Origin: Chitinophagales bacterium
GTDB taxonomy: Bacteria; Bacteroidota; Bacteroidia; Chitinophagales; Chitinophagaceae
NCBI GenBank assembly: GCA_017303395.1
Contig: JAFLBN010000001.1
Coordinates: 310,001 to 374,000 of the forward strand
Length of the DNA: 64,000 nt
Direction of reading: 5' to 3'
Position numbers and translations under genes: made by a program. Numbering within the stretch: the first letter of the stretch is position 1; every line of letters begins with the position of its first letter. The notes under the pieces were generated by a model, which saw only the letters and a list, made by a program, of their open reading frames with translations, ran no database searches and was not told where the DNA came from. Shown here in pieces: positions 41,371-64,000 of the stretch.

Positions 41371-41547
41371 ATGAAAAAAATTATCCTTTTTGGCCTGTTA
41401 ACCCTTTCAGTAGCATCTTTCAGCTCTTGTGTAAAACTGACTAAATGCGACTGCCCTGCCGGCAAATCACTGAGTGTAAACGGCAACGACGAGTATGAAA
41501 TCCGCGCGAATTGCGAATCAAAATCAGGTGGTGTTTGCACTTACTAG
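41371..41547 (+). CDS. Very small lipoprotein (58 aa)
   Basis: The signal MKKIILFGLLTLSVASFSSC leads to a 38-residue mature peptide with four further cysteines (KCDC, NCESKSGGVC), possibly two disulfides. It has its own near-consensus -7 element (TATACTTG near 41351) and its own terminator, so it is a free-standing gene. Function unknown. Confidence 0.6.
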   Translation: MKKIILFGLLTLSVASFSSCVKLTKCDCPAGKSLSVNGNDEYEIRANCESKSGGVCTY

Positions 41548-41574
41548 TAAAAACGCTACAACAATAGAATTGAC

Positions 41575-41600
41575 AAAGGCTTACGTTTTCGTAAGCCTTT
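41575..41600 (+). terminator. Terminator of the small lipoprotein gene
   Basis: A perfect 11-bp stem (AAAGGCTTACG with its complement, loop TTTT), followed by CATTTTTAG. The arms are identical to those of the tRNA-Asn terminators at 53920 and 62060. Confidence 0.8.
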
Positions 41601-47132: not shown

Positions 47133-47137
47133 TATCA

Positions 47138-49441: not shown

Positions 49442-49523
49442 GCTCAAACGGGGCAATAGCAACAATGGCTAACGTTTCTGTAAGCCATACTAATGTTATA
49501 CCGGTTAAAAAAATATTGAGTAC

Positions 49524-50117: not shown

Positions 50118-50311
50118 TACCCTACAACAGCATATTAAAACTATCCAACCGAAAAGCCTGATGCTGTCGCAAGATAGGCTTATTATTGTTGTTATTGGCA
50201 CCTTATAGGTGCCAGCCCTGTGATTAACAGTGAGAATTTTGTGTTTGTAGTAGTTATACGTTAATTTTGAATATTCAATAACGATGCAGTAAATACGATA
50301 CTTTCAGCCGA

Positions 50312-50327
50312 TTTCACTAATGTGAAA
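50312..50327. promoter_or_regulatory. Perfect Crp/Fnr-like operator upstream of the regulator gene
   Basis: TTTCAC, four bases, GTGAAA: a perfect dyad resembling CRP-type half-sites (GTGA...TCAC in inverted order) about 77 bp before the regulator's ATG at 50404. It is a candidate autoregulatory site. Confidence 0.5.
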
Positions 50328-50403
50328 ACATACCACTGACAAGGCACAAACAAACCATCAGTGACAAATGTAAGAGAGGGCTAAACGCAATAACACAAAA
50401 ACA

Positions 50404-50982
50404 ATGGAAAACATACTATTTGACTTTATGTCAAAATACGTTTCACTGACAGAAGAGGAAAAGAATATAATACTATCATTTGACATATTTCACTCTGTTA
50501 AGAAAGGAACAATTTTACTCAAAGAAGGACAAAAATCTAAAAGTAGTTACTTTGTTCTGAAAGGTTGTATTCGTACATATTATGTTTCAGACAATGAAGA
50601 AAAAACTACTGCCTTCTACACAGAAATGGAAGCATTGACCCCACCTTGTGTTATAACGCAAACTCCATCCGAATACTATGTCAGTTGTATTGAAGACACA
50701 TTACTTACGATTTCAAACTCGGATATGGAAGCAGAAGTAAACGATAAATTTCCAAAGTTTGAAACCTTGTGCCGAAAACTATCTGAAGAGAATTTGGCCA
50801 AGCAACAAATAAACTTTGACGAGTTTAAGACGTCTTCGCCTGAACAACGATACTTAAACTTACTGGAGAAAAGGCCCGACCTTATTCAACGTGTTCCGCA
50901 GTATCAGTTGGCAAGCTATCTGGGCATCAAACCCGAATCATTAAGCCGAGTAAGAGCAAGGATTACAGAGAAAAATAAATAG
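50404..50982 (+). CDS. Crp/Fnr-family transcriptional regulator
   Basis: A 192-aa cytoplasmic regulator. The cyclic-nucleotide-binding-like beta-roll spans about 20-115 (KKGTILLKEGQKSKSSYFVL); the residues that bind cAMP in CRP are not conserved (no RRSA motif). A dimerisation helix follows, then a winged helix with recognition region YQLASYLGIKPESLSRVRARI. In Bacteroidota such short Crp-like proteins often sense other signals. It probably controls the downstream duplicated genes: both share a dyad-bearing element just upstream of their promoters. Confidence 0.88.
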   Translation: MENILFDFMSKYVSLTEEEKNIILSFDIFHSVKKGTILLKEGQKSKSSYFVLKGCIRTYYVSDNEEKTTAFYTEMEALTPPCVITQTPSEYYVSCIEDTLLTISNSDMEAEVNDKFPKFETLCRKLSEENLAKQQINFDEFKTSSPEQRYLNLLEKRPDLIQRVPQYQLASYLGIKPESLSRVRARITEKNK

Positions 50983-50986
50983 CAAG

Positions 50987-51009
50987 GTTCATTTCTTAAC
51001 TTAAGTGAA
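50987..51009 (+). repeat. Duplicated upstream element, copy 1
   Basis: A 23-base block (start GTTCATTTCTTAAC, end TTAAGTGAA) identical at 51752-51774. It holds a CTTAA-C-TTAAG dyad with outer TTCA/TGAA arms and lies directly upstream of the -33 element of the first duplicated gene. A candidate site for the Crp/Fnr regulator. Confidence 0.7.
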
Positions 51010-51013
51010 CGAG

Positions 51014-51040
51014 TTGTAGCACGCCTCCCATATACTTTTG
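51014..51040 (+). promoter_or_regulatory. Promoter of the first duplicated gene
   Basis: TTG at 51014-51016, 16 bases, TACTTTTG at 51033-51040 (exact -7). Spacing is the same as in the second copy. Confidence 0.6.
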
Positions 51041-51069
51041 CATATCATTCAAAAACAAATAGAATTGGT

Positions 51070-51693
51070 ATGCAAAAGAAAATCGTGTTTATTAGTCTTG
51101 TCTTGTTAATGACAAGTACAGTAAACCTCAAAGCCCAACCTTCCCTAAAAGACAATTTCAAAAGATTCTACATTGGCAGCTCCTTGTATATGTTAGGGAA
51201 TTTTATCCCAAATGACAAAAACAGGCCTGAATATGTACAATTAAATTTCGGGTATAGGGTAACAACCAAAGATGTTGTTTCCGTAGAGTTTAAAAGGTCT
51301 GTTTATGCCTGGCCGATAGGTATTCCATTCGGCCCATCTTTTGACGCCCCAGGGCTAAACTACCCCGGGCGTGCCCGCATACTTGCCCCTACTATAGGCT
51401 ACCAGCGCTTTTGGTGGAAGGGAGCCTACACATCAGTATATGCATTGAATGCTTTTGAAAAATACATGGACGAAAACAAAAAGAAGATAGGAAACGGATA
51501 TACATTATACGTGAACTTCCATGTGGGTTATCAGTTTAAGTTCTTTAAGAACCGCATCTTTTTTGAGCCCGCTATCGGCTGCAGCTACTGGCCTATCAGG
51601 ACTAATGTACCGGAATCATTTAAAAAGGTTGAAGAAAAATGGAATAACTACTTTATTCAACCTGGGTTGCATTTTGGGTATAATTTCAATTAA
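51070..51693 (+). CDS. Outer-membrane-barrel-type protein, duplicate A
   Basis: A 207-aa exported protein (signal about 1-23, ending LKAQ). The mature part alternates short amphipathic strands (QLNFGYRVTTKDVVSVEFKR, GYQRFWWKGAY, FHVGYQFKFFKNRIFFEP) and ends GLHFGYNFN, a typical barrel C-terminus. I recognise no named family. It is a paralogue of the next gene, of exactly the same length. Confidence 0.7.
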   Translation: MQKKIVFISLVLLMTSTVNLKAQPSLKDNFKRFYIGSSLYMLGNFIPNDKNRPEYVQLNFGYRVTTKDVVSVEFKRSVYAWPIGIPFGPSFDAPGLNYPGRARILAPTIGYQRFWWKGAYTSVYALNAFEKYMDENKKKIGNGYTLYVNFHVGYQFKFFKNRIFFEPAIGCSYWPIRTNVPESFKKVEEKWNNYFIQPGLHFGYNFN

Positions 51694-51751
51694 TACATTA
51701 TCCATACACAGCATCAATCACGAGTACAATAAGAACAAGTATTCGGAGTAA

Positions 51752-51774
51752 GTTCATTTCTTAACTTAAGTGAA
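51752..51774 (+). repeat. Duplicated upstream element, copy 2
   Basis: Identical over 23 bases to 50987-51009, in the same position relative to the second promoter. Confidence 0.7.
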
Positions 51775-51778
51775 TAAG

Positions 51779-51805
51779 TTGTGGCATCATGTCAATCTAT
51801 TTTTG
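51779..51805 (+). promoter_or_regulatory. Promoter of the second duplicated gene
   Basis: TTG at 51779-51781, 16 bases, TATTTTTG at 51798-51805 (exact -7). The frame of the downstream gene is open through this promoter, so the ATG at 51835 is the start. Confidence 0.6.
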
Positions 51806-51834
51806 CAGCAATGTTTAAAACAAATAGAATTGAT

Positions 51835-52458
51835 ATGCAAAAGAAAATTTTCTTGCTTGGTATTGCCTTGATGATGATGTGTACGCCCCACCTGAAAGCA
51901 CAGTACTCAAAAACAGACAGCACCTATAAAAAGTGTTTTGTAGGTAGTACTTTGTTTTTATTGGGCAATTTTTCAACTACCAATCCTCCGGGATTTGCGC
52001 AGCTGAATCTGGGTTATCGCCTTACGAGAAGAGACGTTATCTCTCTGGAACTGATAACATGGAAACATGCATGGCCGCTTGGTATCAACCCGTTTTACAA
52101 TAAGTCATACGGTAAGCCTGAGGAGAAGTTTCCGGGTTATATACGCGAGTATGGTGTAGGGCTGGCTTATCAAAGATATTTTTGGAAAGGGCTATATGCA
52201 GCCGTACATGCAATGCCTATGTGGCAAACATTTAAGAATGACAACGGCGATAAAGTAGGTAGCGGCTTTATTATATTCAACACGTATAGGGTTGGTTATC
52301 ACTTTAAGCTGCTGAAGGACAGGTTTTTTATAGAACCATCAATTGGTGTTGCAGGTCGTGCTTATTACACAAAAATGCCTGCAGGATTTAAAGAAAAAGA
52401 TGACAAGTGGCCTAAATGGACACCTGAACCGGGGCTACACTTTGGGTACAATTTTTAA
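51835..52458 (+). CDS. Outer-membrane-barrel-type protein, duplicate B
   Basis: A 207-aa paralogue of the preceding gene, with a matching signal (MQKKIFLLGIALMMMCT) and aligned segments such as LNLGYRLTRRDVISLELI, AYQRYFWKGLYAAVHA, YHFKLLKDRFFIEPSIGV and the terminal PGLHFGYNF. Coding and regulatory sequence were duplicated together. DUF6326 follows after 10 bp, so those two are cotranscribed. Confidence 0.7.
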   Translation: MQKKIFLLGIALMMMCTPHLKAQYSKTDSTYKKCFVGSTLFLLGNFSTTNPPGFAQLNLGYRLTRRDVISLELITWKHAWPLGINPFYNKSYGKPEEKFPGYIREYGVGLAYQRYFWKGLYAAVHAMPMWQTFKNDNGDKVGSGFIIFNTYRVGYHFKLLKDRFFIEPSIGVAGRAYYTKMPAGFKEKDDKWPKWTPEPGLHFGYNF

Positions 52459-52468
52459 CTGATAAATT

Positions 52469-52888
52469 ATGAATACACAAAACTCATTTGAAGACATCAA
52501 AGTAAATGTGAAACTGAAACTTGCTGCACTGTGGACGAGCTTAATGTTTCTCATAATCTACATTGATTATTTCGCATTATATATGCCCGGCATGATGAAA
52601 AGCATACAGACAGGCCGAGTATTTGTATTCGATATTACGCAGGGATTTCTTGTAGGAGGGCTTACAGTAGTAACAATTCCTGCACTGATGATTTTCTTAT
52701 CTGTTGCAATGCCTGCAAAACCTAACCGCGTGGTAAACATCATTGCAGCAGCGGTGAATATCCCCCTTATATTGTTTAATCTGGCAGGAGAGGCTTGGAC
52801 ACATATGGTATTGGGCGCTGCTGTAGAAGTTGTTCTCCTTGTTTTGATTCTCCGCTATGCATGGAAATGGCCGCGCACAGGAATGTAA
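52469..52888 (+). CDS. DUF6326-like membrane protein
   Basis: A 139-aa protein with four hydrophobic helices (about 20-38, 52-72, 82-104 and 108-128). The start EDIKVNVKLKLAALWTSLMFLIIYIDYF resembles DUF6326 (quoted part: KVNVKLKLAALWTSLMF), a family of small Bacteroidota and Actinomycetota membrane proteins of unknown role. It lies 10 bp after duplicate B. Confidence 0.7.
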   Translation: MNTQNSFEDIKVNVKLKLAALWTSLMFLIIYIDYFALYMPGMMKSIQTGRVFVFDITQGFLVGGLTVVTIPALMIFLSVAMPAKPNRVVNIIAAAVNIPLILFNLAGEAWTHMVLGAAVEVVLLVLILRYAWKWPRTGM

Positions 52889-52960
52889 AAGCATCAATGA
52901 TACATTTCAAGAAGAGGTAGCATGGCTGCATATAATTTCTAAACCCATAACAGGAATCAA

Positions 52961-53878
52961 ATGAAAGCAATTATTTGTACCCGATATGGTACGCCTGATG
53001 TATTGCAACTGGCAAAAGTACCCACACCTATACCTAAAGACAATGAAATACTTGTAAGGATAATTGCAACATCTGTAAACTCAGGAGATGTAAGAGTAAG
53101 AAGCCTGGATGTAAAGGGCTTTACAAAAATAATTATGCAATTGGTGTTGGGTATTTCAAAGCCAAGGAAGCCCATTTTGGGAACCGTATTTGCAGGTGTT
53201 GTAGAAACTGTTGGTAGCAGGGTTTCTACTTTCAATGTGGGCGATAAGGTGTTTGGTATGACAGGTTTGAAATTCGGCACCTATGCAGAATACATTGCAG
53301 TCAGCCTGAAGAGCAATGTAATTGCAATGCCCGATAATGCAACATTTCAGGAAGCTGCTGCTATTGTTTTTGGCGGGCAGACAGCCATATATTTTTTGGA
53401 GAAAGCGAAGATAGTCGAAAAGGCAAATCCCAAAATCCTGATTATCGGCGCAACAGGATCTGTTGGGACATCTGCCATACAGATTGCAAGACAATACAAA
53501 GCAGACATAACCGCAGTTTGCAGTACCGAAGGAGAACAACTTGTAAGGAAACTTGGCGTTGATAAGATTGTATTGTATGACAAGCAAGACTTTACCAAAC
53601 TGACCGAAAAGTTTGACATCGTTTTTGATGCTGTAGGCAAATTCAACAAAAAGCAATGTGAACAGCTGTTGAACAAAAACGGAATATTTAAGACTGTCAG
53701 TTCTGTTTACGCCTCGGAAACCGTACAACAACTGTACTTGCTGAAAGCGCTATTTGAGAAAGGAGAACTAAAGGCAGTTATTGACAAGACTTTTCAAATG
53801 GATGAAATAGTAGCGGCACACAGATATGTAGAATCTGGAAGGAAAAAAGGTAACGTGGTACTGCAAATCAGCGAATAG
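52961..53878 (+). CDS. Zinc-independent MDR-family dehydrogenase (quinone-reductase-like)
   Basis: A 305-aa medium-chain dehydrogenase/reductase. GroES-like domain (about 1-120) without the catalytic Cys/His zinc ligands, then a Rossmann domain with the NADP motif GATGSVGTSAIQIARQY (about 150-170). The best fit is the quinone oxidoreductase/zeta-crystallin branch. Substrate unknown. It is the last chromosomal gene before the tRNA-flanked region. Confidence 0.88.
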   Translation: MKAIICTRYGTPDVLQLAKVPTPIPKDNEILVRIIATSVNSGDVRVRSLDVKGFTKIIMQLVLGISKPRKPILGTVFAGVVETVGSRVSTFNVGDKVFGMTGLKFGTYAEYIAVSLKSNVIAMPDNATFQEAAAIVFGGQTAIYFLEKAKIVEKANPKILIIGATGSVGTSAIQIARQYKADITAVCSTEGEQLVRKLGVDKIVLYDKQDFTKLTEKFDIVFDAVGKFNKKQCEQLLNKNGIFKTVSSVYASETVQQLYLLKALFEKGELKAVIDKTFQMDEIVAAHRYVESGRKKGNVVLQISE

Positions 53879-53919
53879 AAATAGAGCGGATAGTTTATTG
53901 TGATTTTGAGTGTAGTAAA

Positions 53920-53943
53920 AAGGCTTACGTTTCCGTAAGCCTT
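53920..53943. terminator. tRNA-Asn terminator hairpin, copy A
   Basis: A perfect 10-bp stem (AAGGCTTACG with its complement, loop TTTC), with T runs on both strands. It would serve both the dehydrogenase gene on + and the tRNA on -. Confidence 0.8.
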
Positions 53944-53954
53944 CTGTTTTTTCG

Positions 53955-53980
53955 CTCCCCCTTCAGGACTTGAATCTGAG
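53955..53980 (-). pseudogene. tRNA-Asn fragment: T arm and acceptor 3' strand
   Basis: On the minus strand: CTCAG, ATTCAAGT loop, CCTGA, then acceptor AGGGGGA and discriminator G. Only the last 26 bases of the tRNA are present. There is a T-loop variant relative to copy B (A for G next to TTC). Confidence 0.8.
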
Positions 53981-53985
53981 CCCAT

Positions 53986-55494
53986 TTATGATATAACTAA
54001 CTTTTTTAAATCACGTATATCAGATATTAGTTGACATTTATTAGGCATAAAGTATGCATATAACATTCCAATACCTCTTTCTGTAACGATTCCTTCTGTA
54101 ATAGAACCCGCTACTGCATTTGACAAAAAATATAATCCAATATTTTCCTCAGGTTTAGCGATAAACAACGCAGCGCCAGCAGCTAAAGTAGTTTTAGCAG
54201 CACCATTTAGCATTGTGCTATAGTTTTTTAATTCAGAAAATATATCTGCTTGCGTACCAAAGTATTTTTCAAATAAGTCTAACTTTTTCTCATCTAATAT
54301 TGGATTATCAGCAATTGCTTGAAGATAATCAGATTGTTTTTGGATTTTAAATCTATACTCTTTTATAAATTTCAAATAATCACTAAATTTTTGCTCTGGG
54401 ATGTAATTAGGAATTTCTACAACCTGCATTTTTTCCTTAATTATTTTAGTCAAAAATTTTTGTGTGATTAGGTTTTTAAACCCTGTATTGGGATTATTTC
54501 TTATTCTAACATTATTATAAACATCGTTACTCGGTAAAATAACTTCGTCAAATAACGAATCTCTATATTGCTCTTCTAATGCCGATAATGCTCTAACTGA
54601 GTTAGGAGATAAATTATAAGTACCACCCATTGAGGCAAGCATTGGAGAAGCAAGCAAGGTTTTTACTCCTCTTATTAGGCTGAATATCTTAACTAAAGTC
54701 TCATTATTAATGTCTACATGTTTGAGATAATCTTCTAATGCTACCAAATTATCTTTATTGACATCAAAATCAGCTCTGCTTTTAATGATAATAATTACCG
54801 CTAAGCAATATGCATATTGTTGAGTAAGTGTTTCTATAGCCCCATCAATATTGTTTTTTCTCATGCCGATTGCATTAAAGATTTCAATTTGCTCTACAAG
54901 GCTTAAACTCTTTAACACATCAAATTTATTTGCTCCCTTATTAATTAGCGATTCGTATGTAACTCCTTGAGATGATAAAAAGCAGTCGAAAAAACATGCT
55001 CTCCTTATTGATGATATTCTTGTAGCAGGCAGCTTGAACAACTCTATATACCACATATATTCCTCCGCGCTGTTAGCAATAAACCGGCAGTAATCTACAA
55101 ATCCATTTTTCCTTCCTGATTCAAAAGCATAAATATTTATTAGAATTTGATTTTCTGAAGCCAGTCGATATATCTGTTGCAATGAAAACCCATATTCTTC
55201 TATAAAATCGTCATTACAGCTTAATTCTGGCTTTAAGTCAATTACCAAATAAGGATTAGATAAAAATTGTTTAATTCCATGTACCTTATCTGCAAAATTT
55301 CCCCAAGAGTTTTCTATTGAAAATATATCAGTTGTACCATTATGCCCAACAATTTGCAACTGTCTTGCAAATTTTATTGGGTCTGAGATTGGCGTTTGAG
55401 AGTTCTGAATACTGTACTTGATTTGCTGACAGAGCTTTTCTTCTTTAGCTGCGAGGTCATTGATGGCTCTGGGCACTTCTACTTTAATACTCAT
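53986..55494 (-). CDS. Unrecognised 502-aa protein paired with a zeta-like kinase
   Basis: No family recognised. The N-terminal half is mixed alpha/beta (ISDPIKFARQLQIVGHNG, PYLVIDLKPELS). A hydrophobic stretch is near 228-240 (AYCLAVIIIIKS). The C-terminal 80 residues carry two Ala/Gly-rich hydrophobic segments (AAKTTLAAGAALFIA, GLYFLSNAVAGSITEG) that could insert into a membrane. It begins 16 bp after the kinase stop on the same strand, so the two form an operon. Base use is AT-rich. The stop is 5 bp from the tRNA fragment. It is too large to be a classic antitoxin; effector, sensor or adaptor are all open. Confidence 0.7.
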   Translation of the reverse strand: MSIKVEVPRAINDLAAKEEKLCQQIKYSIQNSQTPISDPIKFARQLQIVGHNGTTDIFSIENSWGNFADKVHGIKQFLSNPYLVIDLKPELSCNDDFIEEYGFSLQQIYRLASENQILINIYAFESGRKNGFVDYCRFIANSAEEYMWYIELFKLPATRISSIRRACFFDCFLSSQGVTYESLINKGANKFDVLKSLSLVEQIEIFNAIGMRKNNIDGAIETLTQQYAYCLAVIIIIKSRADFDVNKDNLVALEDYLKHVDINNETLVKIFSLIRGVKTLLASPMLASMGGTYNLSPNSVRALSALEEQYRDSLFDEVILPSNDVYNNVRIRNNPNTGFKNLITQKFLTKIIKEKMQVVEIPNYIPEQKFSDYLKFIKEYRFKIQKQSDYLQAIADNPILDEKKLDLFEKYFGTQADIFSELKNYSTMLNGAAKTTLAAGAALFIAKPEENIGLYFLSNAVAGSITEGIVTERGIGMLYAYFMPNKCQLISDIRDLKKLVIS

Positions 55495-55510
55495 ATTATT
55501 GCTTTTTTAT

Positions 55511-56083
55511 CTATACTTTGTAAAACTCATCAGCTATACATCGATAATTGTCTTGAAGCTTACCAAGCATTACATAACGTTCAATTATCATGCTATCGGG
55601 TGTATATCGATTTCTCAATTTAATACGTGCCAATGCCTCTTCAATAGAGATATCAATCCAATACATTTTTACATAATATCCAAGTTTTTTTAATCGCTTA
55701 AGTAATTCATAATTTTCTAATCTTGCAGAGCCCATATCTATAATAATATCTGCATTAATTTCAATGACATCTTCCAGAAGCTGATAAGCTAATTCACGAG
55801 CTGGCACCTCATACAATTCAAATGCTTTGATTTTGCCCGAACTCAACACTTCATCCTGGTATTCAGGTAGTGCTTCCATTATATTGTCTGGATTCAGAAT
55901 AAAAGCATTTTGAGGGAATTCACCTTGACTTAGCATTTTATTGACAAATGTAGTTTTACCTGACCCGGGTATACCCGCCATCGTATAAACTGTAGGATGA
56001 TGTGATACATTTAAGCTGTTCTTCGGAAGGAGAAGCTTTCGTATTAATTTAACACTTGATGCGCTTATTTGATTAGACTCCAT
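55511..56083 (-). CDS. Zeta-toxin-family P-loop kinase
   Basis: A 190-aa P-loop protein. Walker A is GIPGSGKTTF (37-46). NPDNIMEALPEYQ (Asp66) matches the zeta-toxin segment that positions UDP-N-acetylglucosamine. IIDMGSARLENYELL is the second nucleotide-side motif, and RIKLRNRY provides the lid arginines. Zeta toxins phosphorylate the 3'-OH of UDP-GlcNAc and poison wall synthesis; other members act on different targets. No small epsilon/PezA-type antitoxin is encoded upstream. The ATG at 56083 is preferred to a GTG at 56101. AT-rich, horizontally acquired. Confidence 0.8.
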   Translation of the reverse strand: MESNQISASSVKLIRKLLLPKNSLNVSHHPTVYTMAGIPGSGKTTFVNKMLSQGEFPQNAFILNPDNIMEALPEYQDEVLSSGKIKAFELYEVPARELAYQLLEDVIEINADIIIDMGSARLENYELLKRLKKLGYYVKMYWIDISIEEALARIKLRNRYTPDSMIIERYVMLGKLQDNYRCIADEFYKV

Positions 56084-56520
56084 AGGGGTGCTAGAATACA
56101 CTTTGAAAACTTATGGCTTGAATTTAAATTACGCATTTATTAATAAATAGCCATTTGATTTTATTGATTCATAACTGACTTCTACAAAATAGAACAGATA
56201 GCGGACAACCTTGTTTGGGAATATGCAGCATAAATGTAGACATATTGAATCACCCATCATGAATCAGCGGAATCTTGTAGTATTTAAGATGTGGAAATGA
56301 GCCTTGGAAGAAAGTTTGATATCAATGATGATTTTGTCATCTAAACAACTTGCAGTATTATATGCATTAATGTAAGTATCAATATTAATAGTTATCCTTG
56401 ACAATGTGAAGGTTGAATGTTTATCATAAAGCTAACTTGGTATCCGGCACAGAAAGAATAATACGCTTAAATAGAAAAAGGCACAGTGAGAATAATATTA
56501 CTTATTGTGATTTTACTATA
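56084..56520. other. AT-rich spacer without a recognisable gene
   Basis: About 440 bp between the kinase gene and the terminator of the T9SS cargo gene. It holds a near-consensus -7 box on the minus strand (56113-56106) and a perfect 14-bp AT palindrome (56135-56148), both suitably placed for control of the kinase operon. I see no coding frame, tRNA or repeat in it. Confidence 0.5.
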
Positions 56521-56526
56521 AAAAAT

Positions 56527-56563
56527 AGAGCATTGAGGAACATACATAGCTCTTCAATGCTCT
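56527..56563 (-). terminator. Terminator of the T9SS cargo gene
   Basis: A 10-bp stem (56527-56536 with 56554-56563), extendable past one mismatch, followed on the minus strand by ATTTTTTAT. Confidence 0.75.
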
Positions 56564-56577
56564 GATAAAAATAGTTT

Positions 56578-56902
56578 TTACTCTTTCACCACTTTCTCAG
56601 TCATCACTTCGCCATCTGCCGTGGTCAGTATCAATAGATAGTTGCCTGCGGTCAGTTGCGATGTGTGCAGTACTGTTTTGGTTTGTGTTGCTGTGGTGTG
56701 TATCACCTGCCTGCCCAGTACATCTTTTAGTTGTATCATTGTTCCTTTCGCAACACCCTCTACCGTCAGGGTAGTTTGTGTCGGGTTCGGGTAGATGCTG
56801 ATGTTATTGGCTTCAAGGTTGTTGATGCTTGCTTTTACTTTCAGTGTTATGGTGTTGCTCGTCACCTTCTGTGGTTGAGGACAAATGTAGCTGCTCGTCA
56901 CC
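56578..56902 (-). repeat. Direct repeat: 3' end of the cargo gene (copy 1 of 2)
   Basis: About 325 bp matches 60461-60785 in the same orientation with no length difference and scattered substitutions. The repeat ends exactly where the reading frames diverge (VTSSYICPQ). Recombination between the two copies would delete the 3.9 kb cargo gene or swap its tail. Confidence 0.75.
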
Positions 56903-59900
56903 TCGCAGGTCACTTTGTCTTTATCGTTCAGGTTCGATGCGCCCCATACATTGCTTGTTGCTCCTGCCATGCTTACACCGTTCACTTTCCACTGGTATTT
57001 AGGGTTATTGCCCGCATTCGTGGCGGTGGCGGTGAACGTCAGCATTACGCCACTCCATACCGTGCTGTCGGGGCTCACACTGATGCTGACACTCGGGGTG
57101 AGGTATGGCATCACTGTCATGTTTATCTGATTACTGTTGATTGCCGTATTGCAGGCTGCACCTGTACCCGGTACCAGTTTCGCATAAAACACATCACCCG
57201 TCTGTATGCCTGTGGCTGTATAGGTATTGCTGATGGTAGCAGTTACCAGCGTGCCATTCTTATACCACTGATAGCTTGGTGTGCCGCCCGGGTTGATGGC
57301 GGTAGCTACAAAGGTGGCACTGCCTGTTGTGTTGCCACAGATAGAGTCGTTAGGACTCGGGTAGATGTTTACACTCGGCCCGTTCACTACGCTTACGGTG
57401 GTGGTAACGGTTGCTGTGTTGCAATTGCCGAGGCTGGCATATACACTATACACACCTGCATTGGCAAGGCCTACATTATTGATGGTAGGGTTTTGTGTGG
57501 TATTGCTGAACGACGGGCCGCTCCAGTTGTATGTAGCACCTGCTGTTGTATTACTTGCTGTCAGTTGCAGATCGCTGCCTGCACACAGCGGGCCGTTGTT
57601 GCCTGCCGTGATGGCGATTGGCGTGCTATCTACTACTACAATTGCAGTGTCTTTGCTTATGCAATTGGCATTGGTGATAGTAACTATATAATCACCACTG
57701 TATTTGGTTGGTGCAGCATTGCGGCTGGGATTTTGTGCTGTACTGATAAAGCCATTTGGGCCTATCCAACTATAAGAGACGCCTGTTGTAGTACTACCTG
57801 ATGCGAGGTTTAATACATTACCACTACACAACGGGCTGTTGCTGGTAGCCGTTGGTGATTGTGGTGTAGTGGTTATCCGGATATTGGCCTGTTCGTATGC
57901 AGTATCTATAGGGCCTGTGCTGCGTGCACGCACGCGGTACAGGTTGCTTTGTGCCGTGCTGTGCGGCACTACCCAGTTGTACACACCACCTGTTTGCGAA
58001 GCTGTAACGGTACCCATGGTAGTAACACCACTGGCAAAACTGCCCGAAGCATTAGACAGCTCAAATACAAAATTGTTGGAAGTGCGCATGTTTTGCGTTA
58101 CACCGTAAGGTATGCTAAGCGTATCGCCACTACACACTACCGTATCTGTAAACGGCTGGTGTATATACAGAAATGTATCTACCTCAAACTGCGCAACTGC
58201 AGCATCGAATGGAGTTGGAGAACCACCACCATAAGTAGTTTGGTGTGCGCCTGTGCTAGCTATGCCAGTGGTGCTAATAGTATTAAAACAAAAACTAATT
58301 CTTCCTTTGGCAAAAGTTATATTTGAATTAGTACACTGTTCGCCGCTATTGCCACCATAATAAGTGCCATACAGCCTGTTGCCGTTCGGGTCAAATTCTA
58401 CCATAAAAACATCCTGACCACCAACCAAAGCAGTTTGGTAAGCTCCTGTGGTGGCTATATCAGTATTGCTGCTTGTTGCTCCCAGCCCGTACACATTGCC
58501 TTTATAGTCTGTTGTCAATCCCCATATTTCTTCGACTGTTGGATTGCCACCATAATAGGTACCCCATACACGGTTGCCCGTAGCATCAAATTTAGCAATT
58601 ACGCCATCAGCCCAAGGGCCCACATATGCGGTTTTGAATGCGCCTGTTGTAGCAACACCGGTAGAACAGTTTGCACTGCCACCTACATAGATATTGCCGC
58701 TTCTGTCTGTAGCAATGGCATAAAGACCTATAACCCCGGACCCTGCTGTGGTTGGACCGTAGTAAGTACCCCACAAGCGGCTGCCTGCAGGGCTGAATTT
58801 TGCTATAAAACCATCACCCGTACCCGCACTATTGGGTTTGGATGGCTGGTGTGTACCGGTAGTTGCAACGCCGGTAGCATCGGTCGTATAGCCTGCTATT
58901 ACAATATTGCCCGTTACATCATATTCCATATCTCTGATAGCTCCATTGAAATAAGTACACCATATACGGCTGCCGGATGTATTGAATTTTGCAATAAAAC
59001 CACCTCCTACACTTGTTTGAAATGCACCTGCTGTGGCAAGCCCACCAGTGGTAGTTCCCACACCGCCGGCAATGTAAATACCACCAATGCCGTCTGATGT
59101 AATATTTTCGGCAACTGCGCTGCTGTCGCTGAAATAGGTAGCCCATACCCTGCTGCCACTGCTGTTTAATTTCACCACCATAGAGCTGCCACTGCCCGTA
59201 AAAGATGTCTTAAATGCACCTGTGGTAGCCAAGCCACTGCTGGCTGCGACACCTGACAGGTAAACATCGCCATTGGGGTCTGCCACTACCGATTGAAAAT
59301 AATCGACCGCAGCACCTCCATAGTAGGTAGCCCATTGGCGTACGCCGTTTATATTGAATTTCACGACATAGCCATCGCTGTTGCCGGCAATCGCAGTCTG
59401 GTATGCTCCGGTAGTAGCTATATTGTTGGCGCTGTTTGTGCGCCCACACAGGTATACATTGCCTGCCGTATCTGTATTGATGCCATATCCCAGATCTTCT
59501 GCCGTGCCGCCATAGTAGGTAGCCCATTTAAGCGTAGGGTCTATTACTATGCCTGCACTGTTGTTTGCAGTTGCTACGGCATAGCTCAGTACATTGCCCT
59601 GCAATACAAACCTGCTGCTTACCATTTCCTTCGTACCGGCATAGTAGGTATAGGGTGCCTGCTCTGTAATGCTGCCCATAGGTGTGGTTGCTATCAGCGC
59701 ACCGTCTTTCAGCGCCAGCCCGGTAGCACCATTGTACTGTAGTTGTATATCTGCCACATTGCCCCCCGGGTGCACCACAAAATCATATTTTATACCTGCG
59801 GGTGCTGCTGTTACCGAATTCCCTTCAGCAGCGGTATATAATACCCAGTCTATATGCGGGTACACATTCTTATACGTCACTTTGCGGTAGCTATGTACAG

Positions 59901-60357
59901 CAACGCCATTGGGTACGGCAGGCAGGTAGTAGTTTTCTGTGCCTTCCTGTATGCCTTCGGGCAGTGCTATAGCTTGCCTGTTTGCCCCCAACAGCACTAC
60001 ATCCATACGGTAGGTGGTAAACACTCCCCCCCACGCATCCCCGGAAGGGAGCTTTTTACCACCCGGTAGTTTAGTATTTAGTTTTTCGCTTTTCGAATTT
60101 GGCTGCCCTTGCAGCCATTGGTAGTGCAGTTGCCCGTTGCCTACAAACAGCGTCACATCACCACCGCTCAGCTTATAGTCTATATCCCTGCGGGGTGCGC
60201 CATGCTGGTCGGTTATCTGCCCTCTGTTTTCTATAAACTGCGGTTGTGTAGCTGCTGCATTATATAGTGTGGCTCCTTTCTTGTCTGCCCCCCCTTCGCG
60301 GGCTTGCAGTATCAGTGAAAAGAATAATGCAGTGATTATAAGTGTTGGTAGTTTCAT
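56578..60357 (-). CDS. Secreted SBBP-repeat protein with T9SS type A sorting domain
   Basis: A 1259-aa secreted protein. Signal about 1-21. An N-terminal DUF7948-like region (about 35-275; QFIENRGQITDQHG) precedes about eight SBBP beta-propeller-type repeats (each with WATYYGG or WGTYYGG, then DxxGNVYxxG). Ig/PKD-like modules (about 745-1160) follow, and a C-terminal type A sorting domain (about 1175-1259, with ISIYPNPTQTTLTVEG, LLILTTADGEVMTEKVVKE). It is cargo of the gldKLMN system encoded at 26.7-31.5 kb. Function likely surface adhesion. The 3' 325 bp is duplicated at 60461-60785. Confidence 0.9.
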   Translation of the reverse strand: MKLPTLIITALFFSLILQAREGGADKKGATLYNAAATQPQFIENRGQITDQHGAPRRDIDYKLSGGDVTLFVGNGQLHYQWLQGQPNSKSEKLNTKLPGGKKLPSGDAWGGVFTTYRMDVVLLGANRQAIALPEGIQEGTENYYLPAVPNGVAVHSYRKVTYKNVYPHIDWVLYTAAEGNSVTAAPAGIKYDFVVHPGGNVADIQLQYNGATGLALKDGALIATTPMGSITEQAPYTYYAGTKEMVSSRFVLQGNVLSYAVATANNSAGIVIDPTLKWATYYGGTAEDLGYGINTDTAGNVYLCGRTNSANNIATTGAYQTAIAGNSDGYVVKFNINGVRQWATYYGGAAVDYFQSVVADPNGDVYLSGVAASSGLATTGAFKTSFTGSGSSMVVKLNSSGSRVWATYFSDSSAVAENITSDGIGGIYIAGGVGTTTGGLATAGAFQTSVGGGFIAKFNTSGSRIWCTYFNGAIRDMEYDVTGNIVIAGYTTDATGVATTGTHQPSKPNSAGTGDGFIAKFSPAGSRLWGTYYGPTTAGSGVIGLYAIATDRSGNIYVGGSANCSTGVATTGAFKTAYVGPWADGVIAKFDATGNRVWGTYYGGNPTVEEIWGLTTDYKGNVYGLGATSSNTDIATTGAYQTALVGGQDVFMVEFDPNGNRLYGTYYGGNSGEQCTNSNITFAKGRISFCFNTISTTGIASTGAHQTTYGGGSPTPFDAAVAQFEVDTFLYIHQPFTDTVVCSGDTLSIPYGVTQNMRTSNNFVFELSNASGSFASGVTTMGTVTASQTGGVYNWVVPHSTAQSNLYRVRARSTGPIDTAYEQANIRITTTPQSPTATSNSPLCSGNVLNLASGSTTTGVSYSWIGPNGFISTAQNPSRNAAPTKYSGDYIVTITNANCISKDTAIVVVDSTPIAITAGNNGPLCAGSDLQLTASNTTAGATYNWSGPSFSNTTQNPTINNVGLANAGVYSVYASLGNCNTATVTTTVSVVNGPSVNIYPSPNDSICGNTTGSATFVATAINPGGTPSYQWYKNGTLVTATISNTYTATGIQTGDVFYAKLVPGTGAACNTAINSNQINMTVMPYLTPSVSISVSPDSTVWSGVMLTFTATATNAGNNPKYQWKVNGVSMAGATSNVWGASNLNDKDKVTCEVTSSYICPQPQKVTSNTITLKVKASINNLEANNISIYPNPTQTTLTVEGVAKGTMIQLKDVLGRQVIHTTATQTKTVLHTSQLTAGNYLLILTTADGEVMTEKVVKE

Positions 60358-60409
60358 ATAATGGTCAGGTGTTATCTACAATTTAATACTTATTCCTTCT
60401 ATAAACAAA

Positions 60410-60427
60410 GGGCAGTTGTAGCTGCCC
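60410..60427 (-). terminator. Terminator of the truncated T9SS copy
   Basis: A 6-bp GC-rich stem (GGGCAG with CTGCCC) followed on the minus strand by TTTGTTTAT. It follows the stop of the fragment at 60461. Confidence 0.65.
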
Positions 60428-60460
60428 TCGTTGTATATTGTAGCTCAGTATTTTATTCAC

Positions 60461-60785
60461 TTATTCTTTCACCACTTTCTCTGTCATCACTTCTCCGTCC
60501 GTTGTGGTGAGGATCAATAGATAGTTGCCTGCTGTCAGTTGTGCGGTGTGCAGTACTGTTTTGTTTGCAGTGGCAATGGTATGTATCACTTGTCTGCCCA
60601 GTACGTCTTTTAGTTGTATGATTGTTCCTTTTGTTACGCCCTCTACCGTCAGGGTCGTTTGTGTCGGGTTCGGGTAGATGCTGATCTTATTGGATTTAAG
60701 ATTATTGACGCCTGTTTTGATTTTGATGCCTATCACATTGCTCGTTACCTTCTGCGGTTGAGGGCAAATGTAGCTGCTCGTCACC
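60461..60785 (-). repeat. Direct repeat: sorting-tail copy 2 of 2
   Basis: Second copy of the 325-bp block at 56578-56902. Confidence 0.75.
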
Positions 60786-60853
60786 CAGATACGCCCGTTG
60801 TTTTCCGTCATGCGTAATGGCATGTCATAGTCTACACCGGATAGTGGTTGCAA
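60461..60853 (-). pseudogene. Truncated second copy of the T9SS sorting tail
   Basis: The last 108 residues are nearly identical to the C-terminus of the preceding cargo gene (VTSSYICPQPQKVTSN through GEVMTEKVVKE), while the first 23 (MQPLSGVDYDMPLRMTENNG) have no counterpart there. There is no signal peptide and the start is TTG. It looks like the 3' end of a related gene, left by recombination or deletion. It could not be exported as is. Confidence 0.75.
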
Positions 60854-61167
60854 ACTTGTTGTATAATCCCAGAATACAAACCCTTCAATATTCCAGAAAT
60901 TTGGGTGTAACGGATCTACAAGAAAAGTCTCGTGACTTATGGTTGATTTCCGGTCTAAGGTTATTTGCTTATATGATTATAATTCTATTGTTTTATTTTT
61001 CTAATTAAATTTTTATGAATAACAGATCATCATTAAAGTTCTTAAGACAACCTGTATATAGCACAGTATTTAAATAGTGTTTTCCCTGGATCTTCAGCTA
61101 TCCGAAAGAAGGAACTATCCTTTGTTTAATAAAGCTTGCAATATCTGTATATGGCTTACAATTCAAA
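60854..61167. other. Spacer without a recognisable gene
   Basis: About 310 bp between the truncated T9SS copy and the NTF2-like pseudogene. No frame, hairpin or repeat stands out. It may hold decayed upstream sequence of the truncated gene. Confidence 0.4.
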
Positions 61168-61522
61168 ATGGGATTGAAATTATACGCGCATAAAGAATGC
61201 TTTAACACTACATCATTTCTAAAGCATTGGCATAAAGACGCTGTACTCAATGATCCTTCCATTGGTAGTAAGTTTAAAGGACATGACGAGATACAAAAAT
61301 ATTTTGAGGACTATTTTATAGGCTATGATGCACAAACCAAACTAATAAAGATGGAAATGCAGATAGAAAATAAAATACGCTTTAATGTTTTTATTCACCG
61401 GCATCTTTTCAAAGGGAGAGATTGGAGGTACTTTCGACTTTGTATTGAAAGACAATAAAATCATTACCGCCACAGCCGATTTAATCCATCAAAATACTAT
61501 ACGAATTCAGAATCACAAGTAA
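61168..61522 (+). pseudogene. NTF2/SnoaL-like gene, frameshifted
   Basis: The first frame gives an NTF2-like start (FLKHWHKDAVLNDPSIGSKFKGHDEIQKYF...; family region IQKYFEDYFIGYDAQTK). After about 61390 the similarity continues in the +1 frame (FSKGEIGGTFDFVLKDNKI, then TADLIHQNT) to a TAA at 61520-61522. The shift lies in or near the T run of TGTTTTTATT, consistent with one extra base. NTF2-fold proteins are small enzymes or binders. The product is presumably inactive unless frameshifting occurs. Confidence 0.7.
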
Positions 61523-61527
61523 TAATG

Positions 61528-61551
61528 AAGGCTTACGGAAACTTGAGCCTT
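61528..61551 (+). terminator. Terminator of the NTF2-like pseudogene
   Basis: An 8-bp stem (61528-61535 with 61544-61551, one G-T pair) followed by TTGTTATTTC. It matches the reverse complement of the tRNA-Asn terminator at 22 of 24 bases. Confidence 0.6.
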
Positions 61552-61575
61552 TTGTTATTTCATTATACTATTCTG

Positions 61576-61971
61576 CTACCTGTTATGCTTCGGCTCTAGA
61601 TACTTTCTTACAGACTTAACAACTGAATCAAGTTTTCTTCCATTGTAAAAATCAAGTGCTGTTTCATAACAGTAACATTTGTTTAGACCTGCAGAACGAT
61701 ATTCTTCCCTTGCCATTTTCTCGGTGAATTCCATGATTGTAAGCAAAGCTTGGTGCTGATAATTGGAGCTATTAAAGAACTCTGTAGCAAATGGGTCAAT
61801 ATCTCCACGTATATAGCCTGTATCAGTTCTACTAATTTGATACCCTAGATATTGTGAATATGCAAACTTTTTTAAGTCCCTTTCATTTTTGACAATATAA
61901 GTATCACTTTTTTTCTGAGAATAACAGCCAAATGGCAGTAATATTAATAGAACAATTATTTTACCATTCAT
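61576..61971 (-). CDS. Small exported protein, immunity-like
   Basis: A 131-aa protein with a signal or lipoprotein peptide (MNGKIIVLLILLPFGCYS). The mature part is helical. Its C-terminus (NKCYCYETALDFYNGRKLDS) recalls the closing helix of the Tai4/Rap1a secreted immunity families, with paired cysteines, but the match is by eye and weak. Location at the end of the accessory segment fits an immunity or orphan defence gene. No cognate toxin is visible. Confidence 0.55.
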   Translation of the reverse strand: MNGKIIVLLILLPFGCYSQKKSDTYIVKNERDLKKFAYSQYLGYQISRTDTGYIRGDIDPFATEFFNSSNYQHQALLTIMEFTEKMAREEYRSAGLNKCYCYETALDFYNGRKLDSVVKSVRKYLEPKHNR

Positions 61972-62056
61972 GTACTGACTTTTAAAAATAGTGCTAAAAC
62001 TTTATCAGCATTACTCCACTCAACACCCTAAGTTCGCCAAAAACCAAGATCAAACA

Positions 62057-62120
62057 AAAAAGGCTTACGTTTCCGTAAGCCTTCTGTTCTTTCGCTCCCC
62101 CTTCAGGACTTGAACCTGAG
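62057..62120 (-). repeat. tRNA-Asn 3' end plus terminator, copy B (att-like)
   Basis: Second copy of the 64-base block, next to the integrase gene. Here tRNA identity continues for 21 more bases to the 5' side of the anticodon stem (62141), then ends abruptly. Confidence 0.85.
62060..62083. terminator. tRNA-Asn terminator hairpin, copy B
   Basis: Same 10-bp stem and TTTC loop as 53920-53943, with T runs on both sides. Confidence 0.8.
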
Positions 62121-62141
62121 ACCCCCTGATTAACAGTCAGG
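62095..62141 (-). pseudogene. tRNA-Asn(GUU) 3' fragment: anticodon arm to acceptor end
   Basis: On the minus strand: CCTGA-CTGTTAA-TCAGG (anticodon GTT, Asn), variable loop, T arm TCAGG-TTCAAGT-CCTGA, acceptor AGGGGGA and discriminator G. No D arm or 5' acceptor strand (expected TCCCCCT) lies upstream, where the sequence becomes CCAAAAACC. The break in the anticodon stem is the classic crossover place for tyrosine integrases that use tRNA genes. Confidence 0.85.
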
Positions 62142-62242: not shown

Positions 62243-62263
62243 TCGTGCAAATGTCGTGCAAAT
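62243..62263 (+). repeat. Direct repeat TCGTGCAAAT x2 before the integrase
   Basis: Two perfect 10-bp copies (62243-62252 and 62254-62263), spaced 11 bp start to start, i.e. on one face of the helix. They lie just upstream of the integrase -7 element. They could be integrase arm-type or excisionase/repressor sites. Confidence 0.5.
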
Positions 62264-62281: not shown

Positions 62282-63523
62282 ATGAATATCAATGTTGCTT
62301 TAGCTATTGCAAGCTATGTGAGAAAGGACGGAACTGCCGCAATTGTTATTCGGGTAAGCAAAGGAAAGCAGACCCGTGACCTACCCACCCGGTATACAAT
62401 TCCTGTCAATCAGTGGAACGACAAAAAGCGTCAGGTTAAAGGCACCTATACTGGTGTTAGCTCGGTGACGCAACTTAACAATCAACTTAAAGTAGATTTG
62501 AAGGTTGTGAATGATAATCTGCTGGCCCTGGAACAGGCAGGTATGGTAGAGGCAATCCCCTTCCCGGAACTTGTGAAGCGGCTTTCTAGTTTGGAAAAGG
62601 AGTATTGCTTCTTTGCCTTTGCTGATGCTGTGATTATTGCGTTAAAAGAAGCAAAAAGAATTGGTACCATGAACGCATATTCTGACGCGGTAAAAGCGGT
62701 TGAAAATTTTCACGGGTCAAGGTATCTACCATTGCAACAACTAAATTTTGATTTCCTCCAAAAAATGGAAACGGCACATTTAGCGAAGGGGAACGGCCTG
62801 AATGGATTGGCAGCATATATGCGCTCGATCCGCGCAATATATAACCTTGCCATCAAATCGGGGAAAATAGAAGACAAATTCTATCCCTTCAAGAAATATA
62901 CTATTAGGACTGAAAGGACACAGAAACGTGCAATTAGCTACGAACTATTGCAAGCAATCATGTCTGTTAAGCTCGAGCCAGGTCATATTTGCTTTGATGC
63001 ACGAAACAAATTCCTGATTAGCTATATGCTCTACGGGATGAATTTCTATGATATGGCGTTGCTTGAAAGAAAGAATCTGATTGATGGCCGCGTGCAGTAC
63101 CAACGCAATAAAACAAGCGCGCCATTCAACGTAAAAATTACGCCTGCATTGCAGGCGTTGCTTGATTTGTATATTAAGCCTGGTCAGAAGTCGATTTTTA
63201 ATGTGGTTAAGCGTAGCGATCCTATTTTACAAGATAAGGACATCAAAAATGCAAGGCGGCTTTTCAACGACCGTCTGAAAGACTTAGCGGAACTATGCGA
63301 GATTCAAACTAACTTGACAAGCTATGTAAGCAGGCACTCATTTGCTACTCACGCGAAACTGCATAAAATCCCCATCGAGGCAATCAGCGAAATGCTCGGA
63401 CATACAAGCATAAAGACAACGCAAATTTACCTTGACTCCTTACCGAGTGCAACCCTCGATGGCTACAACGACCTAATACTGAATTCCGGTTCAGATGTTG
63501 CAAAAGCTTCATCGGCATACTGA
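62282..63523 (+). CDS. Tyrosine recombinase/integrase (Bacteroidota mobile-element type)
   Basis: A 413-aa integrase with an N-terminal arm-binding domain (about 5-90), a SAM-like core-binding domain (about 105-205) and a catalytic domain. Catalytic residues are Lys277 (QRNKTSAP), Arg351 (SYVSRHSFATHAK), His374 (LGHTS) and Tyr383 (TQIYLDS). The first Arg is replaced by Asn254 in YGMNFYDMALL, a substitution common in this Bacteroidota group. A weak -7 element (62270-62277) precedes it. Position next to the tRNA-Asn fragment identifies it as the enzyme that recombined there. It converges with the DUF6527 gene. Confidence 0.95.
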   Translation: MNINVALAIASYVRKDGTAAIVIRVSKGKQTRDLPTRYTIPVNQWNDKKRQVKGTYTGVSSVTQLNNQLKVDLKVVNDNLLALEQAGMVEAIPFPELVKRLSSLEKEYCFFAFADAVIIALKEAKRIGTMNAYSDAVKAVENFHGSRYLPLQQLNFDFLQKMETAHLAKGNGLNGLAAYMRSIRAIYNLAIKSGKIEDKFYPFKKYTIRTERTQKRAISYELLQAIMSVKLEPGHICFDARNKFLISYMLYGMNFYDMALLERKNLIDGRVQYQRNKTSAPFNVKITPALQALLDLYIKPGQKSIFNVVKRSDPILQDKDIKNARRLFNDRLKDLAELCEIQTNLTSYVSRHSFATHAKLHKIPIEAISEMLGHTSIKTTQIYLDSLPSATLDGYNDLILNSGSDVAKASSAY

Positions 63524-63537
63524 TATAAATATAGCTA

Positions 63538-63960
63538 TCATGCACTAGTATAATAGAACCACTTTTGCTCAATCCATTTTAAGAATCTTCTCCAGAAAGG
63601 CTTTTTCACACCTCTGTTTTTGCTCGAATAATATTCCTTGAGTTTCTTTTGTTCTCTCGCTCTTCCGTGCTTTATCTCTTTATCTGTCCAAGAGTATGAC
63701 CATTCAATTTTACCGTCCCTAATCCAGTAGTGCGTTCTACATGGCAGTTGCCAGTTGCCAACTGAAGGGTAAAGGCTAGGTTTTCCAGCTTTCACCGATA
63801 ATGACCATTCGTGTGGGCCTAAAGGAGTAATGATTTTCGTTAGGCATCCACATGGGCAAAGATGGGCTGCCACTTTGAAGCGTTCAGAAACATACAGGAT
63901 ACCCTCATCAATACTTTTAGGGATTGATTCTACTTTTTCCAGGTTAACTTTAGAGGTCAT
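63538..63960 (-). CDS. DUF6527-family protein
   Basis: A 140-aa protein with the CPCGC motif (LCPCGCLTKIITPLGPHEW), GNWQLPCRTHYWIRDGKI and a lysine-rich tail with KKPFWRRFLKWIEQKWF. The pattern matches DUF6527. As I recall, family members occur in bacterial ubiquitination-like operons with E1 (ThiF), E2 and ubiquitin-like proteins, where a DUF6527 protein acts as processing enzyme; that should be verified. The ATG at 63960 overlaps the 3' end of an upstream gene by 11 bp, indicating translational coupling. It converges on the integrase with 14 bp between stops. Confidence 0.75.
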   Translation of the reverse strand: MTSKVNLEKVESIPKSIDEGILYVSERFKVAAHLCPCGCLTKIITPLGPHEWSLSVKAGKPSLYPSVGNWQLPCRTHYWIRDGKIEWSYSWTDKEIKHGRAREQKKLKEYYSSKNRGVKKPFWRRFLKWIEQKWFYYTSA

Positions 63961-64000
63961 TGTCGCCAATATTTTTGCTATCGCTTATGTCGAATAGCAT
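63950..64000 (-). CDS. 3' end of a gene upstream of DUF6527 (partial)
   Basis: Reading the minus strand from the window's edge gives MLFDISDSKNIGDNDL and a TAA at 63952-63950, overlapping the DUF6527 start. The ATG at 64000 may be internal. The product cannot be identified from 16 residues. Confidence 0.55.
   Translation of the reverse strand: MLFDISDSKNIGDNDL

What the first reader, a model, noticed from the sequence alone, without database searches (positions are those of the whole stretch)
53917..62141. Two displaced tRNA-Asn 3' ends bracket an 8.1-kb accessory segment, with an integrase just beyond
A 64-base block (terminator plus tRNA-Asn T arm and acceptor end) occurs at 53917-53980 and 62057-62120 with two mismatches, in the same orientation. 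The second copy continues to the anticodon stem and is followed by a tyrosine recombinase. Neither copy has a 5' half. The simplest reading is serial integration at one tRNA gene: an older, integrase-less or decayed segment and a newer element that runs past the window. This makes the locus an island hotspot.
Basis: partly seen in the sequence, partly recalled or inferred. Interest (0 to 1): 0.75.

Follow-up and report, generated by a model that had tools for sequence, protein, structure and literature searches.

The report
Layered DNA islands beside asparagine tRNA
Foreign DNA appears to have been added again and again beside one asparagine tRNA gene of this Bacteroidetes bacterium, and leftover pieces of the tRNA and of its transcription terminator mark the borders like strata; the process is a known one, but the record here is unusually readable.

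Summary
The right-hand element B (62141 to 93858, window coordinates carried on) looks like an integrative mobilizable element: its tyrosine recombinase lies beside the displaced 3' half, and a pair of 10-bp repeats occurs at each end and nowhere else in 120 kb. Loci of that integrase family carry tRNA sequence upstream in 29 of 30 cases, against 1 of 30 downstream. The 8.1-kb segment A has no detectable integrase and is an older layer; its repeat (terminator, acceptor, T arm) differs from B's (acceptor to anticodon stem). That hairpin (up to 2 mismatches) occurs five times in the genome, all in this zone. Of five synteny breaks at or right of 41.6 kb in three relatives, four lie within 10 nt of a copy. 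How A and older layers entered is not settled. Known kind (tandem accretion), legible history.

The parts
41371..41547 (+). 58-aa small lipoprotein-like gene (my reading) that in relative G012 is the direct left neighbour of the terminator and tRNA-Asn
41576..41597 (.). S1: ancestral tRNA-Asn terminator hairpin, left border of the accreted zone; weak trace of a tRNA 3' end behind it
49465..49486 (.). S2: decayed hairpin copy (3 mismatches to the 22-nt pattern, 2 to the 20-nt one) behind the PBP1C-like gene; no tRNA remnant found
53917..53983 (-). S3 = copy 1: terminator plus acceptor end and T arm of tRNA-Asn (left att-like site of segment A)
53986..55494 (-). 502-aa protein without family match; its stop codon begins 3 nt beyond copy 1
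55511..56101 (-). 196-aa zeta-toxin-like P-loop kinase
56578..60357 (-). 1259-aa DUF7948/SBBP protein with Por secretion tail (cargo of A)
60461..60853 (-). 130-aa piece duplicating the C-terminal end of the 1259-aa gene
61168..61522 (+). SnoaL-like gene; the ORF ends at 61458 and the rest seems to continue in another frame (my reading)
61528..61549 (.). S4: hairpin copy (2 mismatches) in opposite loop orientation, most like the hairpin behind the ADH gene of G002 and G008
61576..61971 (-). 131-aa protein without family match (cargo of A)
62057..62141 (-). S5 = copy 2: terminator plus tRNA-Asn 3' half to the anticodon stem; displaced end (att site) of element B
62243..62263 (+). paired arm-type repeats TCGTGSAAAT upstream of the integrase; the matching pair is at the other end of B (93792 and 93803, coordinates carried on)
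62282..63523 (+). 413-aa tyrosine recombinase, probable integrase of element B
63538..63969 (-). DUF6527 protein of a multiubiquitin/E1-like gene set, first cargo of B (B continues beyond the window)

Best explanation
The tRNA-Asn(GUU) gene is a repeatedly used integration site. The ancestral order, kept in relative G012, was small lipoprotein-like gene - terminator - tRNA-Asn - glycosyltransferase. Successive elements entered at the 3' part of the tRNA; each restored the tRNA 3' end and pushed the older terminator and tRNA piece leftwards. The last arrival, B (31.7 kb), is an integrative mobilizable element. Its 413-aa tyrosine recombinase probably recombines the anticodon stem-loop region of tRNA-Asn with a matching attP, binds paired arm sites at both ends, and leaves the displaced 3' half next to its own gene. 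Segment A is an older layer whose att block spans terminator, acceptor and T arm and whose integrase is gone, a CIME-like remnant. Older layers to the left keep only the terminator hairpin, perhaps because it still ends neighbouring genes. Shown by sequence: the anatomy, the empty site, the restriction of the hairpin (up to 2 mismatches) to this locus, the arm repeats, the tRNA association of the integrase family. Inferred: the strand-exchange position, that A and the earlier layers were inserted by recombinases, present-day excision and transfer.
For: Intact tRNA-Asn(GUU) at C1:403858-403932. TCGTGSAAAT occurs 4 times in 120 kb (both strands), a pair spaced by 11 nt at each end of B. Of 30 integrase loci, 29 carry tRNA sequence in the stretch from 600 nt before to 60 nt after the start, 22 of them as antisense matches starting at or after tRNA nt 28; an equal stretch downstream does so in 1 of 30. 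Relaxase, NikA-like protein, coupling protein and ArdC in B. Window flanks joined at the empty site match G012 in 412 of 488 columns; the flank left of S1 alone in 202 of 263, the flanks left of the four other hairpin copies in 133-145 of 281-298. The hairpin with up to 2 mismatches occurs 5 times in the genome, all at window 41.6-62.1 kb; the reversed pattern 0 times. Breaks against G012 (41600), G008 (41607, 53951) and G002 (53951) lie within 10 nt of a copy. Copy 1 has 2 changes in 30 tRNA nt, copy 2 none in 48, which fits the age order.
Against: B's two integrases as queries find no relic between 38 and 62 kb, so nothing shows directly that A and the older layers were inserted by a recombinase. 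No arm-like repeats are shared by the ends of A. S2 and S4 carry no significant tRNA remnant; they are 2-mismatch copies, and 2-mismatch hits also occur elsewhere in other genus genomes, as does the reversed control in G013 (3) and G001 (1). BLAST also finds a more distant hairpin on contig C19 of this genome (89% over 25 nt). The fifth break (G008, 50216) is 0.7 kb from a hairpin, and G002 has a further 3.2-kb insertion at 41277-41337, left of S1. G008 lacks the 41607-50216 block although it has the layer nearer the tRNA, so simple ordered stacking needs a deletion. S4 resembles the hairpin behind ADH in G002 and G008, which stacking does not simply explain. Six of 30 integrase loci lie beside whole tRNAs, two of them in sense orientation, and one beside none. 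B holds a second, P4-like integrase of unknown role. G012, G002 and G008 are metagenome-assembled genomes.
Confidence: 0.8

Rival explanations
1. Only B was inserted by a recombinase. Segment A and the older blocks arose by illegitimate or homologous recombination at the locus-specific hairpin repeats (deletions, insertions, exchanges between palindromes), so the hairpins are recombination hot spots and not att scars.
For: No relic of B's integrases in 38-62 kb; hairpins S2 and S4 without tRNA remnants; the loop is inverted between orthologous copies (window 41576 against G002 406965); four of five breaks fall on hairpins; S4 resembles the hairpin behind ADH in relatives.
Against: Copies 1 and 2 share 30 nt of tRNA beyond the terminator; the hairpin in G012 and the nearest one in G002 are the terminator of the intact tRNA-Asn, so the copies plausibly derive from it; S1 has a weak tRNA trace in an anchored test (p 0.003-0.063 over three orthologues and two reference strings, 10 sites tested), not in the unanchored one except for G008 (p 0.0185).
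Confidence: 0.3
2. Copy 1 was once a full anticodon-type displaced half like copy 2, and a deletion starting inside it removed A's integrase end.
For: The other displaced tRNA-Asn pieces seen in the genus reach query position 40 or beyond, copy 1 only 30; A's 502-aa gene ends 3 nt from the break.
Against: The shared block of copies 1 and 2 includes the terminator, whereas the terminators beside tRNA-Asn differ between elements, B's included; a block of terminator, acceptor and T arm is what a junction-type (J) site could leave (PMC4383910 and PMC6764341, passages; the link is my inference).
Confidence: 0.3
3. B is itself a composite of two elements, one with the 413-aa integrase and one with the P4-like 445-aa integrase near the tRNA.
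For: Two tyrosine recombinases of different Pfam architecture, one towards each end.
Against: No tRNA-Asn fragment was found between the two ends; the arm pairs occur at the outer ends only.
Confidence: 0.2

Closest known systems
NBU1/NBU2-type integrative mobilizable elements of Bacteroidetes (PMC5704250: passages and table lines seen)
   Same: Bacteroidetes host, tyrosine integrase, relaxase, insertion at the 3' part of a tRNA gene
   Different: B is in tRNA-Asn, carries a second P4-like integrase, a coupling protein and a large defence/repair cargo; transfer not shown; IntN1 was not compared
Tandem accretion of an IME with a CIME (model in PMC5704250, passages seen)
   Same: decayed integrase-less segment next to a complete element at one tRNA gene
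   Different: apparently two att classes at one tRNA, and older borders marked only by terminator hairpins
Dehalococcoides ssrA island arrays (PMC3146451, passages seen)
   Same: many tandem islands behind one small RNA gene, marked by 3'-end repeats; 15 of 31 lack an integration module
   Different: the integrase there is related to CcrB recombinases; here a tyrosine recombinase, and most borders keep only the terminator hairpin
Riemerella anatipestifer 10K island at tRNA-Arg (PMC6764341, passages seen)
   Same: Bacteroidetes; 53-bp repeat next to a tRNA gene whose end I read as a hairpin with T run, like the repeat of A; integration and excision were shown there
   Different: single island with its own integrase; different tRNA

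Membership tests
tRNA-targeted genomic island (Islander definition, PMC4383910 passages) | intact tRNA gene and displaced fragment of it, same orientation, with an integrase between | tested here: met
   B: intact tRNA-Asn and copy 2 both on the minus strand, 413-aa integrase between
tRNA-targeted genomic island (Islander definition, PMC4383910 passages) | empty site in a relative | tested here: met
   G012 for the whole zone; no relative was found that lacks only A or only B
integrative mobilizable element (B) | own integrase and relaxase, no complete conjugation apparatus | tested here: inconclusive
   relaxase, NikA-like and coupling protein found; no mating-pore family among the 24 B proteins scanned, but not every ORF of B was scanned
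integrative mobilizable element (B) | excises and is mobilized | not testable with these tools
   no reads or strains
NBU1 family | integrase close to IntN1 | not tested
   IntN1 was not compared
CIME (segment A) | both att sites kept, integrase and transfer genes absent | tested here: inconclusive
   repeats at both ends; no integrase or transfer family among its 6 scanned proteins and no relic of B's integrases; no shared arm repeats, recombination not testable

The most novel reading that the evidence does not exclude
The terminator hairpin of the tRNA, rather than the tRNA itself, is the substrate at which integrase-less blocks enter and leave this locus: a 20-nt palindrome found (up to 2 mismatches) nowhere else in the genome frames gene modules and inverts its loop between relatives.
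Probability: 0.15. Interest if true: 0.65.

Novelty: new member of a known kind. Interest (0 to 1): 0.42.

Why it matters
It turns a two-layer guess into a series of borders: a locus-specific terminator hairpin may let decayed island layers be recognised after the tRNA repeats are gone, which a search that asks for a tRNA fragment plus an integrase would miss. It also ties an integrase family of this order to tRNA 3' halves with a recurring anatomy (displaced half, arm pair, integrase start).

Tried and rejected
Chance repeat or plain shared terminator: rejected, since the hairpin (up to 2 mismatches) occurs only here and copies 1 and 2 share tRNA sequence. Core-genome reading of 54-62 kb: rejected. 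tRNA remnants behind every hairpin: the unanchored test was negative for S1, S2, S4, both ADH hairpins and the G002 copies of S1 and S2 (p 0.18-0.70) and gave p 0.0185 for S1 of G008; the anchored test favours S1 (p 0.003-0.063), leaves S4 at 0.055 and 0.22, and finds nothing for S2 (3000 of 7793 control stretches sampled). Integrase relics in 38-62 kb: only B's two integrases were tried as integrase queries, none found at E up to 1. Shared arm repeats at the ends of A: none beyond short, mostly AT-rich matches. Chimeric assembly of G012: identity right of the tRNA falls from 93% to 70-82% further out, which does not look like a switch to another genome, but no reads were available. PADLOC scan of 10 proteins of A and B: KwaB, capP/RmrA-like, E1-E2 and REase_II-like hits in B, weak hits for the kinase of A, none for the 502-aa protein. 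Rfam scan of 15 of the 29 other integrase loci: 5 matches, 2 of them tRNA, too weak for fragments, so the tRNA-panel BLAST was used; its 33 tRNAs of 15 kinds came partly from the same loci and lack many isoacceptors, so several hits cover only part of the tRNA half, and a match that starts at nt 28 does not by itself prove a missing 5' half. In the residue alignment the rows L074, L078 and L084 are wrong reading frames and were disregarded; L080 and L090-L099 were not in it. Papers: listings only (5, 15, 15, 15, 12 and 12 rows shown of 5, 92, 32, 18, 36 and 39 papers); none of the rows shown names this locus or the inverted-half ends.
Full report
Observation. On the minus strand copy 2 reads as anticodon stem-loop (GUU), variable loop, T arm, acceptor end and terminator; copy 1 has only T arm, acceptor end and terminator. 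No whole tRNA lies in the window.

The missing gene. The window is C1:310001-374000 of a 3.76-Mb, 44-contig assembly. The intact tRNA-Asn(GUU) lies at C1:403858-403932 on the minus strand, that is 93858-93932 in window coordinates carried on. Its terminator differs from the one at copies 1 and 2, as expected if the element brought its own 3' end.

Element B (62141 to 93858). I scanned 30 proteins against Pfam, 6 of A and 24 of B; some ORFs of B were left out. B has a 413-aa tyrosine recombinase at the left end, a second P4-like one (445 aa; the label P4-like is my knowledge) near the tRNA, a MobA/VirD2-like relaxase, a NikA-like protein, a coupling protein and ArdC. Cargo includes a multiubiquitin - DUF6791/ThiF - DUF6527 set, a DnaE-type polymerase with an IMS-family protein (a pairing I recall as the ImuB/DnaE2 mutasome), an SRAP peptidase, a UvrD helicase and a KwaB-like protein (also in PADLOC). 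TCGTGSAAAT occurs at 62243 and 62254, just before the integrase start, and at 93792 and 93803, just before the tRNA, and nowhere else on either strand of the 120 kb examined. That ties both ends and the 413-aa integrase together.

The integrase family. Of 396 genomes of the order searched, 44 had a match at E 1e-40 or better. I examined the 30 loci that this call returned, this one included. In 29 of 30 there is tRNA sequence upstream: 22 antisense matches that start at or after tRNA nt 28 (18 of them 140-167 nt from the integrase start), four whole antisense tRNAs, two whole sense tRNAs, and in L089 an antisense match to nt 8-27 of a tRNA-Thr 495 nt away; L097 has none. The downstream control gave 1 of 30. 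Best panel matches are Asn, Arg, Met, Thr, Pro, Ser, Val and Gly, some from short stretches. Paired arm-like repeats before the start can be seen by eye in many. In the 16 usable rows of the residue alignment the place of the first catalytic arginine reads GMNF, GINF, GMPF, GIPF, GMSF or GASF, without an arginine; the later R, G-H and Y are kept, with R-H in all but L085, which has R-N (which boxes are catalytic is my knowledge).

Empty site and layers. The glycosyltransferase right of the tRNA is next to a tRNA-Asn in 14 of 16 relatives' stretches fetched (L040 ends inside the tRNA, L053 has none). In G012 the sequence of window 41316-41600, holding a 58-aa lipoprotein-like gene and a hairpin, runs straight into tRNA-Asn. 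Window flanks joined at 41597/93858 agree with it in 412 of 488 columns, the tRNA side being nearly identical. The flank left of S1 alone agrees in 202 of 263, those left of the four other hairpin copies in 133-145 of 281-298, which I take as background. So about 52 kb lies between tRNA-Asn and its old terminator. G002 is collinear with the window from 41337 to 53951 (91%) and then has 1.2 kb of its own before the tRNA. G008 is collinear to 41607, resumes at 50216 and stops at 53951, 0.8 kb before its contig ends; its tRNA lies at the end of another contig, so the rest is unknown.

The hairpin. GGCTTACG-N4-CGTAAGCC with up to 2 mismatches occurs at five places in the whole genome, all between window 41578 and 62081 (three exact, two with 2 mismatches); the reversed control pattern gives none. 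A looser BLAST search shows one more similar hairpin on contig C19 (89% over 25 nt). Among 15 genus genomes, copies with at most one mismatch are found at this locus in G000 (three), G002 (four) and G012 (one), on the matching left-flank contig in G008 (one), and elsewhere in G010 (one exact, C87). All further hits have 2 mismatches and, S2 and S4 apart, are scattered; the reversed control also gave 3 in G013 and 1 in G001. Of five breaks at or right of S1 (41600 in G012; 41607, 50216 and 53951 in G008; 53951 in G002; the rejoining points at the tRNA not counted) four lie within 10 nt of a copy. G002 also has a 3.2-kb insertion at 41277-41337, left of S1, beside a 3-mismatch hairpin at 41278.

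Segment A. It has no detectable integrase, a zeta-toxin-like kinase next to a 502-aa protein found in none of the other 394 genomes searched, a large SBBP/Por-tail protein with a partial duplicate, and a SnoaL-like gene that seems broken. GC swings from 31% to 51% in 1-kb windows, so it may itself be a patchwork. Its repeat (terminator, acceptor, T arm) would fit the junction class of att sites, B's (acceptor to anticodon stem) the anticodon class; Islander reports both classes, and 4 tandems of three or more in its survey (PMC4383910, passages). The class of A is inference.

Hotspot. Displaced tRNA-Asn 3' pieces also occur in G006, G009, G010, G011 and G014, so in 6 of 15 genus genomes counting this one (a piece at a contig end in G005 is not counted). 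In G006 the piece lies within 1.5 kb of an integrase match 29% identical to that of B over 245 aa.

Comparison with the literature. The IME review (PMC5704250, passages) describes this route: integration, decay to a CIME, then a second integration at the same gene. The Dehalococcoides ssrA arrays (PMC3146451, passages) are the nearest many-layer case I saw. I therefore file the locus as a new member of a known kind. Not settled: whether A and the older layers entered by recombinase or through the hairpins, and the role of B's second integrase.

Noticed in passing
L039, L044, L051, L060, L061, L062 (relatives, not the window): Seven ends of another island family beside tRNA-Asn (six) or tRNA-Met (one) carry an inverted copy of the whole or nearly whole 5' half of the same tRNA, 178-226 nt (717 nt in L061) from the 3' half, with a conserved arm between. 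Function unknown; no row shown reports it.
   Followed up: partly
L009:3538-5393 (begins at window 63538): Multiubiquitin, DUF6791-ThiF (E1-like) and DUF6527 genes in a row inside B, possibly a ubiquitin-like defence set.
   Followed up: partly
L038, L183, L184, L187 (G012): G012 is 93% identical to this genome just right of tRNA-Asn but 73-76% to its left, and 70-82% again further right: possibly a replacement tract that begins at the tRNA.
   Followed up: partly
window 41742-49441: Alpha-2-macroglobulin-like and PBP1C-like genes (names by my reading of the ORFs) between hairpins S1 and S2; the PBP1C protein has a 96% match in G002 and full-length matches in G003 (73%) and G007 (68%) on contigs other than that of tRNA-Asn, while the other genus genomes give partial weak matches or none.
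   Followed up: partly
L072:2776-2869: Flavo-1 RNA family match above the gathering score (49.3 against 42 bits) near a relative of the integrase.
   Followed up: no
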